Of a stretch of 36,335 nt of DNA, positions 1,077 to 31,636 are shown piece after piece. Made by a program: the position numbers and the translations under genes. Position 1 is the stretch's first letter. Each line of letters begins with the position of its first letter. Location of the stretch: assembly GCA_026419705.1 (NCBI GenBank), contig JANZYY010000002.1, forward strand, positions 1-36,335. Reading direction: 5' to 3'. Below the pieces are notes generated by a model that had not been told where the DNA came from, ran no database searches, and saw only the letters and a list, made by a program, of their open reading frames with translations. The DNA is from Fischerella sp. (GTDB lineage Bacteria; Cyanobacteriota; Cyanobacteriia; Cyanobacteriales; Nostocaceae).

Positions 1077-2404
1077 ATGTACCGTCTCAACACACGAGCT
1101 TTTGAAATCTTACGTGCTGAAGTTCAAAAATGCAGCAGTGATGACAAGATTGGCAAAACCGAGCGCCAAATCGTTACGAAACGTTTAGAAAAACTGCGGC
1201 GAGAAAAAGGTCATCCCGTCAATGTAGATGAACTGCGCGACACAGTTGTAGACATATTTCCACGATTCAGCGAAAAGGCAATCGAGCAAGCTGCAAGAGC
1301 TAATCAGCCACCAGGTATCTTTAGCAAAATAAAATGCGTGGCAATAATAGTAACAAATGTAACTGGAATTGTCTTGGTGGTAAATTTACCCTATCCGATG
1401 ATTCGCTTATCCGTTGCCTATCCGTTGCCAAAACAGCACCAATCTTGCTGTTACCCAGTTTTATTCAGTATGGATCGTAACTATCAGGGAGCAATAAACT
1501 ACGTTGAACAAGCAGATCGGTTAGTAAACGAAGCTACGAGCCAAGCTGATATTGAGCTTGGTGCAGAGAAAGTCAAACAAGCACACAAGCATCTAGACAA
1601 CCTACCAGTTTGGTTTTTGGGGCATTTTCCTCTAGCTTACTGTAGCTTATTAGATTGCACTTGGAAGTTTACCTTAGATGAGTTTGAAGATGCTCGTCGC
1701 CGGGTAGCGCGGATGGATGCGAAAGTTTTTCAAGAAAAAATGCTTTGACGCTATTAACAGAAGCAGAAACAGCTCTTCAGACTGCAAAACAACAATACGA
1801 ACAAGCCAAGAATGCACAAGAGCAACAAAAAGCGATCGCCTCCATGCAAGCGGCGCTGGATACTCTAGAGCAAATACCTAAAGAAACACTAGCAGGAAAA
1901 ACGGCACAGACAAAGCTAGCAGCTTACGAGCGCGATTTTGGTAAAGTAGTTAATACTCTTACAGGTGATCGCCAGACAAGCTCATTAATTGAGGCTGCGA
2001 AGGTATTTGCCTTGCAAGCTGCACAAGTTTCACAACATCCACCCCATCCAGCAGAAAAATGGGAGCAAATAGAAAAACTATGGTTGGAACCAATTGAGCG
2101 GCTACAAAAAGTTAAAGTTGGAGAACCAAATTATTTGGAAGCACAAAAGTTACTGGCCACATATCAGAGCAACTTAGGGATTGTGCAAACTCGTAAACAA
2201 GCTGAAAGCAAATCAACACAAGCTCTCAAACAAGCTAACGAACAAATTCAAAGACTAATTGCTTTCCCTCCCACCGATCGCAACCAATTTAAAGGTGAGT
2301 TAATGGGAATTATCAATCACCTGAAAACTATTAAACCAGGAACAATTGCTTATGCAGAAGCACAACAACTGCTAATCTCAGCACAGCAAAGGTTGCAACA
2401 GTAG
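1077..2404 (+). pseudogene. Conserved hypothetical protein split by frameshift (ORFs 1077-1748 and 1745-2404 read as one gene)
   Basis: ORF1 ends ...DAKVFQEKML*. A -1 shift at the A6 run (1735-1740) gives ...QEKNALTLLTEAETALQ..., continuous with ORF2. An 11-bp tandem duplication lies at 1408-1429. Confidence 0.7.
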
Positions 2405-2563: not shown

Positions 2564-2745
2564 TAGATGTTGTTGGAAAGTAAGTAGATTGTTCGTTGTC
2601 GGAGACTACTTATTAGAGCGATCGCATTCATTAACGTTTGAGATTAGAGGCCGGAAATTTCGCGTCTCTAGATTATTTTTCATCTGCATCTAGAGCAGTC
2701 TACAATAGTAGCCTAAATGAGAATTAGCCATTAATTTGTGTTTTT

Positions 2746-4221
2746 ATGACTTCTGCTACTACCGTAAAAACTGAGTACGAAGCGATAATTGGTTTAGAAA
2801 CCCATTGTCAGCTCAGTACCAAAACCAAAATTTTTTCTTGTAGCTCCACAGAATTCGGAGCTGAACCCAATACTAACATCGATCCGGTGTGCATGGGTTT
2901 GCCGGGTGTGTTGCCCGTGCTCAACGAAAAGGTACTAGAATATGCCGTGAAAGCAGGTTTGGCACTCAACTGTCAAATCGCCAAATATAGTAAATTCGAT
3001 CGCAAGCAATATTTTTACCCTGACCTTCCCAAAAATTATCAAATTTCTCAGTACGACTTGCCCATTGCCGAACACGGCTGGTTAGAAATTGAGTTGGTAG
3101 ATCGGGATGGAGATCCCATCCGCAAAAGAATTGGCATCACTCGCTTGCACATGGAGGAAGATGCAGGCAAACTAGTACACGCAGGTAGCGATCGCCTTTC
3201 TGGTTCAGCCTATTCTTTAGTAGACTACAACCGTGCTGGTGTACCATTGATAGAAATTGTCTCAGAACCCGATCTGCGTTCCGGACAAGAAGCTGCTGAA
3301 TACGCCCAAGAATTACGCCGGATTATGCGTTATCTCGGTGTTAGCGATGGCAACATGCAAGAAGGTTCGCTGCGCTGTGATGTGAATGTTTCCGTGCGTC
3401 CTGTCGGTCAAAAGCAGTTTGGCACGAAGGTAGAAATTAAAAATATGAACTCGTTCAACGCCATCCAAAAGGCGATTGAATACGAAATTGAGCGCCAAAT
3501 CGCAGCGCTCGAAGCTGGCGAAAAAATCGTGCAAGAAACCCGCTTGTGGGAAGAAGGTGCTCAGCGCACAGTCAGCATGCGGAGCAAGGAAGGTTCTAGC
3601 GATTATCGGTACTTCCCCGAACCCGATCTAGCACCAATTGAAGTCTCAGACGAACAATTGCAAGAGTGGCGAAGTCAACTCCCGGAACTTCCAGCCGCAA
3701 AACGCCGTCGCTACGAAGATGAGTTGGGTCTTTCAACCTACGATGCGCGAGTCCTCACAGAGGAACGCGTTACTGCTGAGTATTTTGAAGCGGCGATCGC
3801 CGCAGGTGCCAACCCCAAAGCCGCTGCTAACTGGATTACTCAAGATATCGCTGCTTACCTGAACAAAAATAAACTCAGCATCACCGATATCGCTCTCACC
3901 CCTGCCAATCTCGCTGATGTCATCAGTCGGATCGAAAAGGGCAAAATTAGCAACGCCCAAGCTAAACAAAAATTGGCCGATTTGCTGAGTGGTGTTTCTC
4001 CAGAGAAAGCTTTTGCAGGTCAAGAGTTAATAACAGATCCCAGCGTGCTAGAACCCATTATTGATGAAGTGATAGCTGCGAATCCCAAAGAAGTAGAAAA
4101 ATATCGTAACGGTAACGTCAATCTCAAAGGTTTCTTTGTAGGGCAAGTTCTGAAAAAAACCAACAAACGCGCCGATCCCAAGCTGACTAACGAATTGGTG
4201 GATAAAAAGCTAAATGTCTAA
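2746..4221 (+). CDS. gatB: Asp-tRNA(Asn)/Glu-tRNA(Gln) amidotransferase subunit B
   Basis: 491-aa ORF with GLETHCQL, GLPGVLPVLN and YFYPDLPKNYQISQYD motifs; typical GatB C-terminus. Confidence 0.97.
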   Translation: MTSATTVKTEYEAIIGLETHCQLSTKTKIFSCSSTEFGAEPNTNIDPVCMGLPGVLPVLNEKVLEYAVKAGLALNCQIAKYSKFDRKQYFYPDLPKNYQISQYDLPIAEHGWLEIELVDRDGDPIRKRIGITRLHMEEDAGKLVHAGSDRLSGSAYSLVDYNRAGVPLIEIVSEPDLRSGQEAAEYAQELRRIMRYLGVSDGNMQEGSLRCDVNVSVRPVGQKQFGTKVEIKNMNSFNAIQKAIEYEIERQIAALEAGEKIVQETRLWEEGAQRTVSMRSKEGSSDYRYFPEPDLAPIEVSDEQLQEWRSQLPELPAAKRRRYEDELGLSTYDARVLTEERVTAEYFEAAIAAGANPKAAANWITQDIAAYLNKNKLSITDIALTPANLADVISRIEKGKISNAQAKQKLADLLSGVSPEKAFAGQELITDPSVLEPIIDEVIAANPKEVEKYRNGNVNLKGFFVGQVLKKTNKRADPKLTNELVDKKLNV

Positions 4222-4351: not shown

Positions 4352-4415
4352 AGTTTGACGAGGATAGGGGAAAATTAGTCATCAGCCTTGTCCTGAAGGT
4401 AGCACAAAAGGGGTA

Positions 4416-4501
4416 TTGCCCCTCATAGCTCTAATGCTATACTGTGCTATCTACATGCACCCTGATGATCTGCAGAGCTACCCCAGTGGCTCTCTTTTTT
4501 T
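4416..4501 (+). ncRNA. Candidate sRNA unit, copy 1 of 3 (promoter plus transcript; predicted RNA about 4450-4501)
   Basis: TTGCCC (4416-4421), 16-nt spacer, TATACT (4438-4443), ATGCACCCTGATGATCTG from 4455, then AGAGC-TACCCCAGTG-GCTCT plus T-run. Confidence 0.75.
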
Positions 4502-4677
4502 GTAGGAGTACCTAGCATGACAAATGAATGCCACCGAAAATGGTATGGCTTATAACTCAGGTTGTTGATTAGAGATGTTTGAGGAATTAAAATTAACAAG
4601 AAAAATCGCCCTCTTGCCGATCGTGCTTGTACGGAGATTCTTAGAGAAAATTTTAATCAAAAACTCAGTAAGGGGTC

Positions 4678-4763
4678 TTGCCCCACACCGTCAAAATGAT
4701 ATACTGTGATAAGTAGATGCACCCTGATGATCTGGAGAGCTGCCCAAAAGCTCTCTTTTTTTT
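4678..4763 (+). ncRNA. Candidate sRNA unit, copy 2 of 3 (predicted RNA about 4712-4763)
   Basis: TTGCCC (4678-4683), 16-nt spacer, TATACT (4700-4705), ATGCACCCTGATGATCTG from 4717, then GAGAGCT-GCCCAAA-AGCTCTC plus T-run. Confidence 0.78.
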
Positions 4764-4945
4764 GAAATTTTTGCTATTACGCTAAAATTTAACAATCATT
4801 CCCAAAAATCTAGCCCCGATTTTGCTCTTAATATCCCTGCTGCATGCATTCATGTAGTCATGGTTTGGTCACGATTTTGTATTCGCAGGTAGTTTAGAAA
4901 CTATCCCTGAGAACTTTCAGCACAAAAAAAGTTAATTAAGGTGTA

Positions 4946-5032
4946 TTGCCCCACATCCCTAACCCGGTATAATATGTTAAATAGATGCACCCTGATGATC
5001 TGGAGAGCTGCCCAAGTGGCTCTCTTTTTTTT
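4946..5032 (+). ncRNA. Candidate sRNA unit, copy 3 of 3 (predicted RNA about 4980-5032)
   Basis: TTGCCC (4946-4951), 16-nt spacer, TATAAT (4968-4973), ATGCACCCTGATGATCTG from 4985, then GAGAGC-TGCCCAAGTG-GCTCTC plus T-run. Confidence 0.8.
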
Positions 5033-5153
5033 GTTGGTAGTTAGTAGTTGGTGGTTGTTAGGAACAAACAACAAGCAACAAACAACAGAGAACAAATGGC
5101 AAAAGCTTGATATAATCGCCAGTCAGCCGAATAATAGTCGTGGGGGAAAAATC

Positions 5154-12586: not shown

Positions 12587-13094
12587 CGACCTGCTTTTTC
12601 AAGACTTATGCTGTAATTATAAATAGTTGGGCTAGGCAGAAATTATGTATCACAATAAACTTGATTTAAATTAATTTATTTTCAAATTTTTAGTATTTGA
12701 AATCTAAAATAAATGAATTTTTGTTGCAATTAGTGTTACTTGAAAATAAATTCAAGTAATTGCAAATAGATAGTTGCTTGATTCACATCTTTTTGTCGGG
12801 GAGGTAGTGCTACAACTCGGTTCTTCCCATGCTGTCTATATTTCCACAAAGATCAACAATTCCAATTAATCGAATCAATGAATAATGTACGTCTTTAGTT
12901 AGAGTACAAGCTCAGAGCAATTAGGATATTCCTAAAAATGTGAATAAAACGATGGGAATTGAGTAAATAACTGAATTTTGTAATTTGAGTGGGAATTTTA
13001 AGCTTTTTCCACTTCAAACCATTATTCATCACTCTTTTCCACTTCAAAGCTGAATTCAAAATCAAGATGCAAATATTATCCTTTGGTAGATTTT

Positions 13095-15515
13095 ATGTCT
13101 GATTTAATTCAAGCAGTCCTCGATAGTGAAGAAAAAAATGATTTGCGTTCCTTTTTAAGTGAATTAAGCCAACAGGAAAAAAGATACTGGCTGCGTAATG
13201 ACATACTGAATGTATATAACGAATATTGTGCCAAGTACCAGACATCCGGGCAATTTAGCACTTCATCATCTTTGTATAAACTAATTTACTACACTCAGGA
13301 AATCATTCAAGACGGTTCCAGCTTTTGTTTCATTGTCCGTCCCAAAATTGCCAGTCAAGAAGTTTATCGGCTGACAGCAGATTTAAGTGTTGAGCGGATG
13401 ACAGTGCAAGAGCTTTTAGATTTGCGCGATCGCTTGGTAAATCGTTTTCATCCCAACGAAGGCGATCTGTTAGAAATAGATTTTGGTCCATTTTACGATT
13501 ACTCTCCCATCATCCGCGACCCAAAAAATATTGGCAAGGGAGTGCAGTTTCTCAACCGTTACCTGTCTAGCAAACTTTTTCAAGATCCCAAGCAATGGCT
13601 GGAAAGTTTGTTTGTTTTCTTGAGCCTGCATCAATATAACGGCGTTCAGCTACTTATCAACAATCGCATTCAATCCCAGCAGCAACTTTCCGAACAAGTC
13701 AAAAAAGCGATCGCCTTTGTGAGCGCTCGTCCTAACAAAGAACCCTATGAAGAGTTGCGGTTCCAATTGCAAACAATGGGCTTTGAACCAGGTTGGGGTA
13801 ACACTGCTGCACGTATCCAAGAAACCTTGGAAATGCTGGATCAATTGATTGACTCTCCCGATCCTCAGACTTTAGAAGCCTTCATTTCTCGAATTCCAAT
13901 GATTTTTAGAATCGTCTTGGTATCTCCCCACGGTTGGTTTGGGCAAGAGGGAGTTTTGGGGCGTCCTGATACTGGTGGTCAAGTGGTCTACATTCTCGAT
14001 CAAGCCAGGAATTTGGAAAAGCAGCTGCAAGAAGACGCCATACTGGCTGGTTTAGAGGGATTAAATGTCCAGCCGAAGGTGATTATTCTCACTCGCCTGA
14101 TTCCCAATAGTAATGGCACTCTTTGCAACCAACGTTTAGAAAAAGTCTACGGTACGGAAAATGCCTGGATTTTGCGCGTGCCATTTCGGGAATTCAATCC
14201 CAACATGACACAAAATTGGATTTCCCGGTTTGAAATTTGGCCGTATTTAGAAACCTATGCGATCGATGCTGAAAAAGAACTGCTGGCGGAATTTCAAGGT
14301 AGACCCGACTTAATAGTTGGTAACTATTCCGATGGGAATTTAGTCGCATTTTTGCTATCACGTCGCTTGGGCGTTACCCAGTGTACCATCGCCCATGCTT
14401 TAGAAAAGTCCAAATATTTGTTTAGTAACCTCTACTGGCAAGATTTGGAAGATAAATATCATTTTTCGCTGCAATTCACCGCTGATTTATTGGCAATGAA
14501 TGCAGCCAATTTTATCATCAGCAGCACTTACCAAGAAATTGTCGGAACTCCGGATAGTATCGGGCAATATGAATCTTATAAGTGCTTTACTATGCCGGAT
14601 CTTTATCATGTAGTCAATGGCATTGAACTATTTAGTCCCAAATTTAATGTTGTACCGCCAGGCGTGAACGAGAATTACTTCTTTCCTTACACTCGGACTC
14701 AAGACCGGATTGAGAGCGATCGCCAACGCATTGAGGAAATGGTCTTTACTTTGCAGGACTCCGCTCATATTTTTGGCAAACTCGACGATTCCAGCAAACG
14801 CCCTCTCTTCTCAATGGCACGTCTTGACCGGATCAAGAACCTCACAGGTTTAGCAGAATGTTTTGGTCAAAGCAAGGAATTGCAGGAGCGTTGCAACTTA
14901 ATATTAGTAGCAGGTAAGTTGCGCGTTGAAGAATCAGGTGATGACGAAGAACGAGCAGAAATTATCAAACTCTACCGGATTATTGAGCAGTACAATCTCC
15001 AAGGTAAAATTCGCTGGCTGGGTGTACGTTTATCTAAAACAGATTCTGGAGAACTATACCGCGTAATTGCCGACCATCAAGGAATATTTGTGCAACCCGC
15101 TTTATTTGAAGCGTTTGGTTTGACGATTTTGGAGGCGATGATCTCCGGATTACCAACTTTTGCCACCCAATTTGGTGGACCGTTGGAAATTATTCAAGAT
15201 CAAATCAATGGCTTTTACATCAACCCAACTAATTTAGAGGAGACAGCCACAAAAATTTTGAATTTTGTGAATAAATGCGACCAAAATCCCAATTACTGGT
15301 ACGAAATTTCTCAAAGGTCTATAGACCGAGTTTACAGTACCTATACTTGGAAAATTCATACTAACAAGTTGCTATCATTAGCGCGAATTTATGGCTTCTG
15401 GAATTTTATCTCAAAGGAAAATCGAGAAGATTTGTTGCGTTATATTGAGGCTTTGTTCTATTTAATTTACAAACCGAGAGCGCAACAATTATTAGCCCAA
15501 CATCAGTATAGATAA
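13095..15515 (+). CDS. susA: Sucrose synthase
   Basis: About 806 aa; SPHGWFGQEGVLGRPDTGGQVVYILDQ, NYSDGNLVAFLLSRRLGVTQCTIAHALEKSKY, and FEAFGLTILEAMISGLPTFATQFGGPLEII are typical of sucrose synthases. Confidence 0.97.
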   Translation: MSDLIQAVLDSEEKNDLRSFLSELSQQEKRYWLRNDILNVYNEYCAKYQTSGQFSTSSSLYKLIYYTQEIIQDGSSFCFIVRPKIASQEVYRLTADLSVERMTVQELLDLRDRLVNRFHPNEGDLLEIDFGPFYDYSPIIRDPKNIGKGVQFLNRYLSSKLFQDPKQWLESLFVFLSLHQYNGVQLLINNRIQSQQQLSEQVKKAIAFVSARPNKEPYEELRFQLQTMGFEPGWGNTAARIQETLEMLDQLIDSPDPQTLEAFISRIPMIFRIVLVSPHGWFGQEGVLGRPDTGGQVVYILDQARNLEKQLQEDAILAGLEGLNVQPKVIILTRLIPNSNGTLCNQRLEKVYGTENAWILRVPFREFNPNMTQNWISRFEIWPYLETYAIDAEKELLAEFQGRPDLIVGNYSDGNLVAFLLSRRLGVTQCTIAHALEKSKYLFSNLYWQDLEDKYHFSLQFTADLLAMNAANFIISSTYQEIVGTPDSIGQYESYKCFTMPDLYHVVNGIELFSPKFNVVPPGVNENYFFPYTRTQDRIESDRQRIEEMVFTLQDSAHIFGKLDDSSKRPLFSMARLDRIKNLTGLAECFGQSKELQERCNLILVAGKLRVEESGDDEERAEIIKLYRIIEQYNLQGKIRWLGVRLSKTDSGELYRVIADHQGIFVQPALFEAFGLTILEAMISGLPTFATQFGGPLEIIQDQINGFYINPTNLEETATKILNFVNKCDQNPNYWYEISQRSIDRVYSTYTWKIHTNKLLSLARIYGFWNFISKENREDLLRYIEALFYLIYKPRAQQLLAQHQYR

Positions 15516-30243: not shown

Positions 30244-30516
30244 TCAATCTTTTGATTTTTCAACCAATTCCAGTTCTTTTTTGCGACAACCAACGATAAA
30301 TCCCGTATTTAGGAAATGTACTGCATAGATATAGGATCTTTGTAAAAAAGAGCCTATGCTAACGACATAACCAATATCTCCCTTTTTACCGAGAACTGCG
30401 CCAATTTCTTGACCTGGAAAAGTGCCATCATTCTTGATCTGTTTGCGGAGTCGAACTTTATCACCTATGTCAAAAGCAGGTGGTTCGTATAGCTCGATTT
30501 CATCATCTGATTGCAT
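30244..30516 (-). CDS. nifZ: Nitrogen fixation protein NifZ
   Basis: FDIGDKVRLRKQIKNDGTFPGQEIGAVLGKKGDIGYVVSIG; overlaps the end of nifV. Confidence 0.92.
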   Translation of the reverse strand: MQSDDEIELYEPPAFDIGDKVRLRKQIKNDGTFPGQEIGAVLGKKGDIGYVVSIGSFLQRSYIYAVHFLNTGFIVGCRKKELELVEKSKD

Positions 30517-31636
30517 GAGAAACCTTTTGTTTGTAAACTAAATTCAAAAGTTCTTGAGTAGTGAGGCTGCGTTTTTTCTGGATTGATTGTTGCCGTACTG
30601 CGTCTAATACAGATTGGGTTTCTTCTGTGTTTAGGATGATGCCATGTTGTTGCAGCAAATTAGATAGTAAATGCCTACCAGAATGCTTACCTAAAACCAA
30701 CCGCCGCTCCCAACCAACTTCTTCGGGTGCAAATGGTTCGTAGGTGATAGGGTTTTGCAACACGCCGTGAGCATGAATTCCAGATTCGTGAGCGAAGGTA
30801 TTTTCACCAACAATTGCTTTCCAAGGTGGTACACTGCAACCAGATGCGGTTGCTACCAGTCGGGACAATTCTAACAAACGTCGAGTATCGATGCCAACAT
30901 CAATACCGTGAATGTGTTTGAGAGCTACGATCACTTCTTCTAAAGCCGCATTTCCTGCTCTTTCACCCAACCCATTGACTGTGGTATTTACTGATGATGC
31001 TCCCGCTTTTATACCAGCAAGGGCATTGGCAGTTGCCAGACCAAAATCATTGTGGGTGTGGATCTCCACAGGAATTGTCAGAGCCGAAACCAGTCGATTG
31101 ACTTTTGTGTAAGTAGTAAAAGGGTCAAGAACGCCGACAGTATCGCAGAAACGAAACCGCGATGCACCCCACTCTTGGGCGTAGTGGGCTACATCAAAGA
31201 GGAAGTTTTCATCTGCACGAGAAGAATCTTCTCCTCCGACTGCTACCCAAAGACCTTGATCGAGGGCAAAGCTGATACTATCTTTGAGTTGTTGTAAAGT
31301 TATCCGTAGCTGACCGTGAAATTTTGCAGCAATTTGAATTCCAGAGACGGGAATGGAAATGTGCATTCTCTTCAAACCACAGGCCATGGAAGCGCGAATA
31401 TCTGAGATGACAGCGCGATTCCAGCCTAGCAAGTTAGCAGACAAACCCAAATCAGAAATTGCGGCGATCGCTCTTGTTTCTTCCTCACCCATTGCTGGAA
31501 TACCGACTTCTATCTCGTGAACGCCGATAGCATCCAGAAATTTGGCGATCGCTACTTTTTCTTCTTTGTTGAAAGCAACACCAGCCGCTTGTTCGCCATC
31601 ACGCAGAGTTGTGTCATTAATAAGAACTTGATTCAT
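30503..31636 (-). CDS. nifV: Homocitrate synthase
   Basis: NDTTLRDGEQAAGVAF, HTHNDFGLATANALAG, GENTFAHESGIHAHGVL. Confidence 0.96.
   Translation of the reverse strand: MNQVLINDTTLRDGEQAAGVAFNKEEKVAIAKFLDAIGVHEIEVGIPAMGEEETRAIAAISDLGLSANLLGWNRAVISDIRASMACGLKRMHISIPVSGIQIAAKFHGQLRITLQQLKDSISFALDQGLWVAVGGEDSSRADENFLFDVAHYAQEWGASRFRFCDTVGVLDPFTTYTKVNRLVSALTIPVEIHTHNDFGLATANALAGIKAGASSVNTTVNGLGERAGNAALEEVIVALKHIHGIDVGIDTRRLLELSRLVATASGCSVPPWKAIVGENTFAHESGIHAHGVLQNPITYEPFAPEEVGWERRLVLGKHSGRHLLSNLLQQHGIILNTEETQSVLDAVRQQSIQKKRSLTTQELLNLVYKQKVSHAIR

What the first reader, a model, noticed from the sequence alone, without database searches (positions are those of the whole stretch)
4416..5032. Three tandem promoter-sRNA-terminator units between gatB and argJ
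Seen directly: three units at 262- and 268-bp spacing. Each has TTGCCC, exactly 16 nt, TATA(C/A)T, 11 nt, the identical ATGCACCCTGATGATCTG, then a hairpin and T-run. The loop and stem closure vary (TACCCCAGTG, GCCCAAA, TGCCCAAGTG) and the sequence between units is unrelated, so selection appears to act on the units. Inference: a multicopy family of about 52-nt sRNAs whose 5' single-stranded segment is the target-recognition site. The tandem layout recalls NsiR1 upstream of hetF in Nostoc, but the genes and the -35 box here differ.
Basis: partly seen in the sequence, partly recalled or inferred. Interest (0 to 1): 0.87.

Follow-up and report, generated by a model that had tools for sequence, protein, structure and literature searches.

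The report
HetR-box tandem siblings of sRNA NsiR1
Three short repeated genes between gatB and argJ look like small regulatory RNAs that share the 5' end of the known heterocyst RNA NsiR1, but each sits behind a predicted binding site for the cell-differentiation master regulator HetR, and the same arrangement recurs across many filamentous cyanobacteria, including ones that do not make heterocysts.

Summary
Confirmed: three promoter-RNA-terminator units lie between gatB and argJ, with an identical 18-nt 5' segment, unrelated spacers and U-run hairpins. Corrections: (1) 'TTGCCC' is not a -35 box. It is the right half of GGGN5CCC, the published HetR recognition site, followed by an (extended) -10. 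(2) The resemblance to NsiR1 is not only layout: the 5' segment GUAGAUGCACCCUGAU is NsiR1's own. Rfam NsiR1 scores copies 2 and 3 below its cut-off and misses copy 1, and the same genome also carries DIF1-promoter NsiR1 copies. (3) The unit is a widespread family: 156 of 191 loci sit beside gatB or argJ, 1-5 copies per slot, in heterocystous, non-heterocystous and even unicellular cyanobacteria. Of 341 distinct units, 285 have the HetR box, 28 DIF1 and none both. The box is missing in all 11 units from the HetR-less lineage. Stem covariation, an invariant segment with no coding signature, and conservation of units over spacers support a functional RNA. Most likely: HetR-controlled NsiR1 siblings acting on mRNAs through the shared 5' segment. 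Transcription, HetR binding and targets are inferred, not shown. Verdict: new variant of a known kind.

The parts
2746..4221 (+). gatB, upstream flank of the conserved slot
   Evidence: TIGR00133 621 bits, PF02934/PF02637; flanks homologous units in most loci
4411..4421 (+). HetR-recognition-like palindrome of unit 1, GGGTATTGCCC (GGGN5CCC), followed by CTCA
   Evidence: sequence; consensus from PMC4192349 and PMC7377430
4438..4443 (+). -10 element of unit 1 TATACT with upstream TG (extended -10)
4448..4501 (+). sRNA unit 1 (start inferred at about 4448-4450): 5' segment 4455-4472, hairpin 4474-4493, T-run to 4501
   Evidence: start not measured
4673..4683 (+). HetR-recognition-like palindrome of unit 2, GGGTCTTGCCC, followed by CACA
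4700..4705 (+). -10 element of unit 2 TATACT with upstream TG
4710..4763 (+). sRNA unit 2: 5' segment 4717-4734, hairpin 4734-4756, T-run to 4763; best RF02399 NsiR1 match in the slot, 33.1 bits
4941..4951 (+). HetR-recognition-like palindrome of unit 3, GTGTATTGCCC (one mismatch in the left half, conserved in relatives)
4968..4973 (+). -10 element of unit 3 TATAAT
4978..5032 (+). sRNA unit 3: 5' segment 4985-5002, hairpin 5002-5025, T-run; RF02399 25.2 bits
5154..6467 (+). argJ, downstream flank of the conserved slot; the spacer before it (with a possible own -10, TTGATATAATC near 5107) is fairly conserved among relatives
   Evidence: TIGR00120 528 bits; spacer alignment

Best explanation
Each unit is an independent gene for a roughly 50-nt trans-acting small RNA, a sibling of NsiR1. 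HetR binds the GGGN5CCC palindrome at about -35 and, with the (extended) -10 and no -35 hexamer, switches transcription on (inferred). The RNA ends at a rho-independent terminator (predicted, with covariation). Its invariant unpaired 5' segment GUAGAUGCACCCUGAUGAU pairs with translation-start regions of mRNAs and blocks their translation (inferred from published NsiR1 action on hetF and alr3234). Several tandem copies with slightly different loops raise the dose and allow functional divergence. The HetR-box class thus gives a direct HetR-to-sRNA arm parallel to the DIF1 (HetZ-dependent) NsiR1 arm, and it also exists in filamentous cyanobacteria without heterocysts.
For: Shared 5' segment with Rfam NsiR1, and true DIF1-type NsiR1 copies elsewhere in the same genome (C198 55 bits, C627). 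HetR box at a fixed position (-44 from the ATG of the segment) in 227 of 239 units of hosts other than the HetR-less lineage, with at most 1 mismatch, against 2.4% in shuffles and 0 of 11 units in hosts of the HetR-less lineage (HetR absence of the sampled G genomes, of the two named hosts by lineage). Bases after CCC also match the published consensus CCCanca (logo TCA at -32 to -30; consensus). Of 341 distinct units, 285 HetR box, 28 DIF1, 0 both; a -10 is present in 89% of the first and 0% of the second class. In 391 genomes of the class the exact segment occurs in 51 of 202 HetR-positive and 2 of 189 HetR-negative genomes (Fisher p 5e-14, not corrected for phylogeny). Terminator stem covaries: 8 of 10 pairs with changes on both sides, score 0.391 against 0.267 in shuffles and at most 0.197 when slid. 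Units conserved, spacers not. NsiR1 precedent.
Against: No transcript, HetR binding or target was measured. GGGN5CCC was not tested against other regulators. HetR could repress rather than activate. The HetR-less contrast is essentially one lineage (f18). No extended complement of the segment outside the sRNA genes themselves was evident in the relatives' hit list, and the best duplex found, upstream of gatB, is not conserved. The hetP-family gene of this genome showed no site. One mismatch in the box of copy 3.
Confidence: 0.66

Rival explanations
1. These are simply NsiR1 itself, already known, in another place of the genome.
For: Same 5' segment, similar length, tandem layout, NsiR1 model matches at E 1e-4 and 0.01; NsiR1 proper is widespread, above cut-off in 126 of 196 genomes of the order.
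Against: Below the Rfam cut-off here, and no match above cut-off in 18 loci carrying homologous units; promoter element (HetR box plus -10, not DIF1), bases after the segment (GATC instead of AACA/TAAT), terminator stem and genomic place all differ and sort together.
Confidence: 0.15
2. The units are cis-acting leader or terminator elements that control argJ (or insulate argJ from gatB), not trans-acting RNAs.
For: Strong synteny: 156 of 191 loci beside gatB or argJ; same strand as argJ in nearly all.
Against: Each unit has its own promoter and strong terminator; in three loci (L031-L033) the unit is inverted within the slot; boxed units also occur far from gatB/argJ with other hairpins (L167-L179); the conserved part is the 5' segment, not a switch-like structure.
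Confidence: 0.1
3. The segment is a protein-binding or sponge RNA: it titrates an RNA-binding protein or another RNA instead of pairing with mRNAs.
For: Near absolute conservation of 15-16 nt across orders is more than most seed regions need; many copies; no extended complementary target recognised.
Against: NsiR1 with the same segment represses mRNAs by pairing; seed regions such as that of Yfr1 are equally invariant.
Confidence: 0.2
4. HetR represses these promoters in vegetative cells rather than activating them in differentiating cells.
For: The palindrome overlaps the -35 region; a HetR-repressed target (alr2242) is reported in Anabaena.
Against: The promoters lack a -35 hexamer and keep an extended -10, typical of activator-dependent promoters; DIF1 occupies the same position in the heterocyst-activated NsiR1 class.
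Confidence: 0.2
5. The segment is the start of a micropeptide (MHPDD...).
For: ATG start, open frame in many copies.
Against: In 233 boxed units codons 2-4 show no synonymous change, some units stop at codon 6, and length to the T-run is not kept modulo 3; the inferred RNA start leaves about 5 nt upstream of the ATG.
Confidence: 0.02

Closest known systems
NsiR1 (Rfam RF02399), tandem sRNA upstream of hetF in Nostoc sp. PCC 7120
   Same: 5' segment GGUAGAUGCACCCUGAU, about 55-60 nt, own promoter and terminator per copy, tandem array with identical and divergent copies, link to HetR
   Different: HetR box plus (extended) -10 instead of DIF1 (TCCGGA) without -10; gatB-argJ slot instead of hetF; other terminator stem; copies below the Rfam cut-off
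HetR-recognition-site promoters (hetP, hetZ)
   Same: GGGN5CCC with CA at the same distance after CCC (hetZ GGGTCTAgCCCagCA; copy 2 GGGTCTTGCCCCACA)
   Different: drives sRNAs; box centred near -34, whereas the hetZ site lies at about 56-17 nt upstream of its start
NsiR8, NsiR9 and the 51-nt sRNA 4547237r of Nostoc PCC 7120 (PMC4734099)
   Same: HetR-dependent (NsiR8, NsiR9) or about 51 nt and found in heterocystous strains (4547237r)
   Different: not shown to share the segment; whether 4547237r is a member could not be tested because its sequence is not in the text
Yfr1
   Same: short cyanobacterial sRNA with an invariant unpaired motif
   Different: unrelated motif (CACUCCUCACACC), not linked to HetR

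Membership tests
NsiR1 (RF02399) | covariance-model score at or above the gathering cut-off of 39 bits | tested here: not met
   33.1 and 25.2 bits for copies 2 and 3, copy 1 no match; 0 hits above cut-off in 18 homologous loci
NsiR1 (RF02399) | 5' segment GGUAGAUGCACCCUGAU | tested here: met
   alignment; identical ATGCACCCTGAT core in all copies
NsiR1 (RF02399) | DIF1 promoter motif TCCGGA near -35 | tested here: not met
   HetR box instead; 0 of 341 units have both
NsiR1 (RF02399) | array upstream of hetF | tested here: not met
   array lies between gatB and argJ
NsiR1 (RF02399) | heterocyst-specific, HetR-dependent transcription | not testable with these tools
   no expression data; HetR box is only a prediction
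HetR-recognition-site promoter | GGGN5CCC with conserved flanks | tested here: met
   copies 1 and 2 exact, copy 3 one mismatch; logo of 220 promoters agrees with the published consensus
HetR-recognition-site promoter | HetR present in the genome | tested here: met
   HetR_C 158.8 bits at C127:4623-4859
HetR-recognition-site promoter | HetR binding (ChIP or gel shift) | not testable with these tools
   needs experiment
trans-acting base-pairing sRNA | conserved unpaired seed plus rho-independent terminator | tested here: met
trans-acting base-pairing sRNA | identified mRNA target | tested here: inconclusive
   limited duplex tests only; no conserved target found

The most novel reading that the evidence does not exclude
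HetR directly drives a conserved gatB-argJ class of NsiR1-type sRNAs throughout multicellular cyanobacteria, so that the sRNA arm of the HetR network is older than heterocysts, with DIF1/NsiR1 and HetR-box siblings as two separately wired branches of one seed family.
Probability: 0.5. Interest if true: 0.78.

Novelty: new variant of a known kind. Interest (0 to 1): 0.62.

Why it matters
NsiR1 is known as a heterocyst sRNA behind DIF1 promoters, which are thought to answer to HetZ. A sibling class with textbook HetR sites in a fixed genomic slot, also in strains without heterocysts, offers a direct handle on the open question of what HetR regulates in non-heterocystous filamentous cyanobacteria, and on how multicopy sibling sRNAs diverge. 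Its promoter logo (285 boxed units) is also a large comparative data set for the HetR recognition sequence. It would extend Rfam, whose cut-off misses these copies.

Tried and rejected
Rfam at gathering cut-off: only a tRNA in the window. Micropeptide reading rejected. -35 box reading rejected. argJ/gatB leader reading rejected as main explanation because of inverted copies and off-slot copies. Target search: hetP-family gene no site; a -29.6 kcal duplex upstream of gatB in this window (about 2648-2693) is not kept in relatives, and a different one at about -113 recurs only in some Nostoc loci; genomic complements of the segment are mostly the sRNA genes themselves. Literature: no paper found with the segment as text that concerns cyanobacteria or on an sRNA between gatB and argJ; the primary NsiR1 and TSS-mapping papers of 2010, 2011, 2014 and 2020 were not available to read here (the 2014 one was looked up and is not held), so prior mention there or in supplements cannot be excluded.

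Full report
OBSERVATION. The three units exist as described. The 18-mer is exact in all three and absent elsewhere in the genome at up to three mismatches. Compared with five three-copy relatives (Fischerella, Pelatocladus and kin), boxes and transcribed units are 87-96% identical while the spacers between units are 39-53%. Another genome of the same genus has the same three copies with the same copy-specific features, but with a spacing of 573 and 267. Units, not spacers, are therefore kept. Three of the five terminator-like sites in the slot are the unit hairpins (shuffles give 0.9 sites).

PROMOTER. The published requirement for HetR binding is GGGN5CCC, with consensus tnantngnGGGtcaanCCCanca and hetZ site GGGTCTAgCCCagCA (PMC4192349; PMC7377430). 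In 220 distinct promoters the logo is A-rich, then GGGGT-N4-CCCC-TCA, then TG-N-TATA-N-T and TAAGTAG before the segment. So this is a palindrome plus an extended -10, without a -35 hexamer. The palindrome is present with at most one mismatch in 227 of 239 units of hosts outside the HetR-less lineage (shuffles 2.4%) and in 0 of 11 units of hosts of the HetR-less lineage (HetR presence; two of the eleven hosts, L100 and L110, are placed in that lineage by name and sequence, not by a HetR search). The HetR-less hosts are essentially one family, so this is one evolutionary contrast, not eleven.

RNA. RF02399 NsiR1 matches copy 2 (33.1 bits) and copy 3 (25.2), below the cut-off of 39, through the shared 5' segment. 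The same genome carries NsiR1 copies above the cut-off with TCCGGA promoters. The 34-sequence alignment across orders has 15 invariant columns, all in the 5' segment. The terminator stem covaries: 8 of 10 pairs with changes on both sides, 0 of 500 shuffles reach the score, and slid controls are at most 0.197 against 0.391. A peptide is made very unlikely by the absence of synonymous changes in codons 2-4 and by the lost frame downstream.

DISTRIBUTION. The segment with at most two mismatches occurs in 99 of 196 genomes of the order (a few of these are chance hits). The exact 18-mer AGATGCACCCTGATGATY occurs in 53 of 391 genomes of the class, 51 of them with HetR, against 151 HetR-positive genomes without it and 187 HetR-negative ones without it (one of the two HetR-negative hosts is only 62% complete). 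Named hosts include Fischerella, Nostoc, Calothrix, Rivularia and Scytonema, but also Symplocastrum, Coleofasciculus, Microseira, Argonema and the unicellular Gloeocapsopsis (life style of these genera from general knowledge). Of 191 loci with a unit, 156 have gatB or argJ within 2.5 kb; complete slots hold 1 to 5 units. Synteny to gatB, and in one family also argJ, extends to other orders. In three loci of one lineage the unit is inverted within the slot. Further boxed units with other hairpins lie elsewhere in some genomes.

TWO WIRINGS. Of 341 distinct units, 285 have the HetR box, 28 have DIF1, 28 have neither at the strict position, and none has both. A -10 is present in 89% of HetR-box units and 0% of DIF1 units. 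'Neither' includes the HetR-less hosts, shifted boxes and decayed extra copies. The DIF1-class loci fetched do not sit in the gatB-argJ slot. Rfam NsiR1 proper is itself widespread in the order, above cut-off in 126 of 196 genomes.

MECHANISM. Shown by sequence: promoter architecture, terminator, segment conservation, synteny, co-occurrence with HetR. Inferred: transcription, direct HetR control, activation rather than repression, and mRNA pairing. The last rests on NsiR1, whose copies repress hetF and alr3234 in Nostoc PCC 7120 and commit cells earlier when overproduced (PMC9045159). Targets of this class were not found; the limited tests are.

NOVELTY. Known: NsiR1, DIF1 promoters, HetR sites, NsiR1-like RNA in Limnospira (PMC8400943). 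Not found in the held literature or at Rfam cut-off: the gatB-argJ class with HetR boxes. Prior mention in papers or supplements not held cannot be excluded. It is filed as a new variant of a known kind, not as NsiR1 itself, because the Rfam cut-off, DIF1 promoter and hetF location were tested and not met.

Noticed in passing
L167-L169 (G161, G186, G084): A second slot with 4 to 7 tandem HetR-box units at about 220-240 nt spacing, near-identical units, between two long unidentified ORFs, not gatB/argJ.
   Followed up: partly
L170-L174, L179: Units with the same 5' segment and HetR box but a completely different terminator (GACGCCC...GGGCG), so terminator swapping within the family.
   Followed up: partly
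L275 (G124, family f32) 1493: A DIF1-like NsiR1 unit above the Rfam cut-off in a complete genome without a detectable HetR, so the DIF1 class does not strictly follow HetR.
   Followed up: no
L044, L087, L099, L144 (Nostoc and kin): Second copies beside intact ones with decayed palindrome (AGTATTAACCC) and in some an altered segment (ATGCACCGTGATG), perhaps pseudogene copies or copies under another regulator.
   Followed up: no
L031-L033: In one lineage the unit lies in the gatB-argJ slot on the opposite strand.
   Followed up: partly
window 2648-2693: Strong but unconserved predicted duplex (-29.6 kcal/mol) between unit 3 RNA and the region upstream of gatB.
   Followed up: partly
window 13083-15515 and 30503-31636: Sucrose synthase and a homocitrate-synthase-like (nifV-type) gene, in keeping with a diazotrophic host.
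   Followed up: no
window 1077-1748 and 1745-2404: Two ORFs before the tRNA and gatB without any Pfam or NCBIfam match.
   Followed up: no
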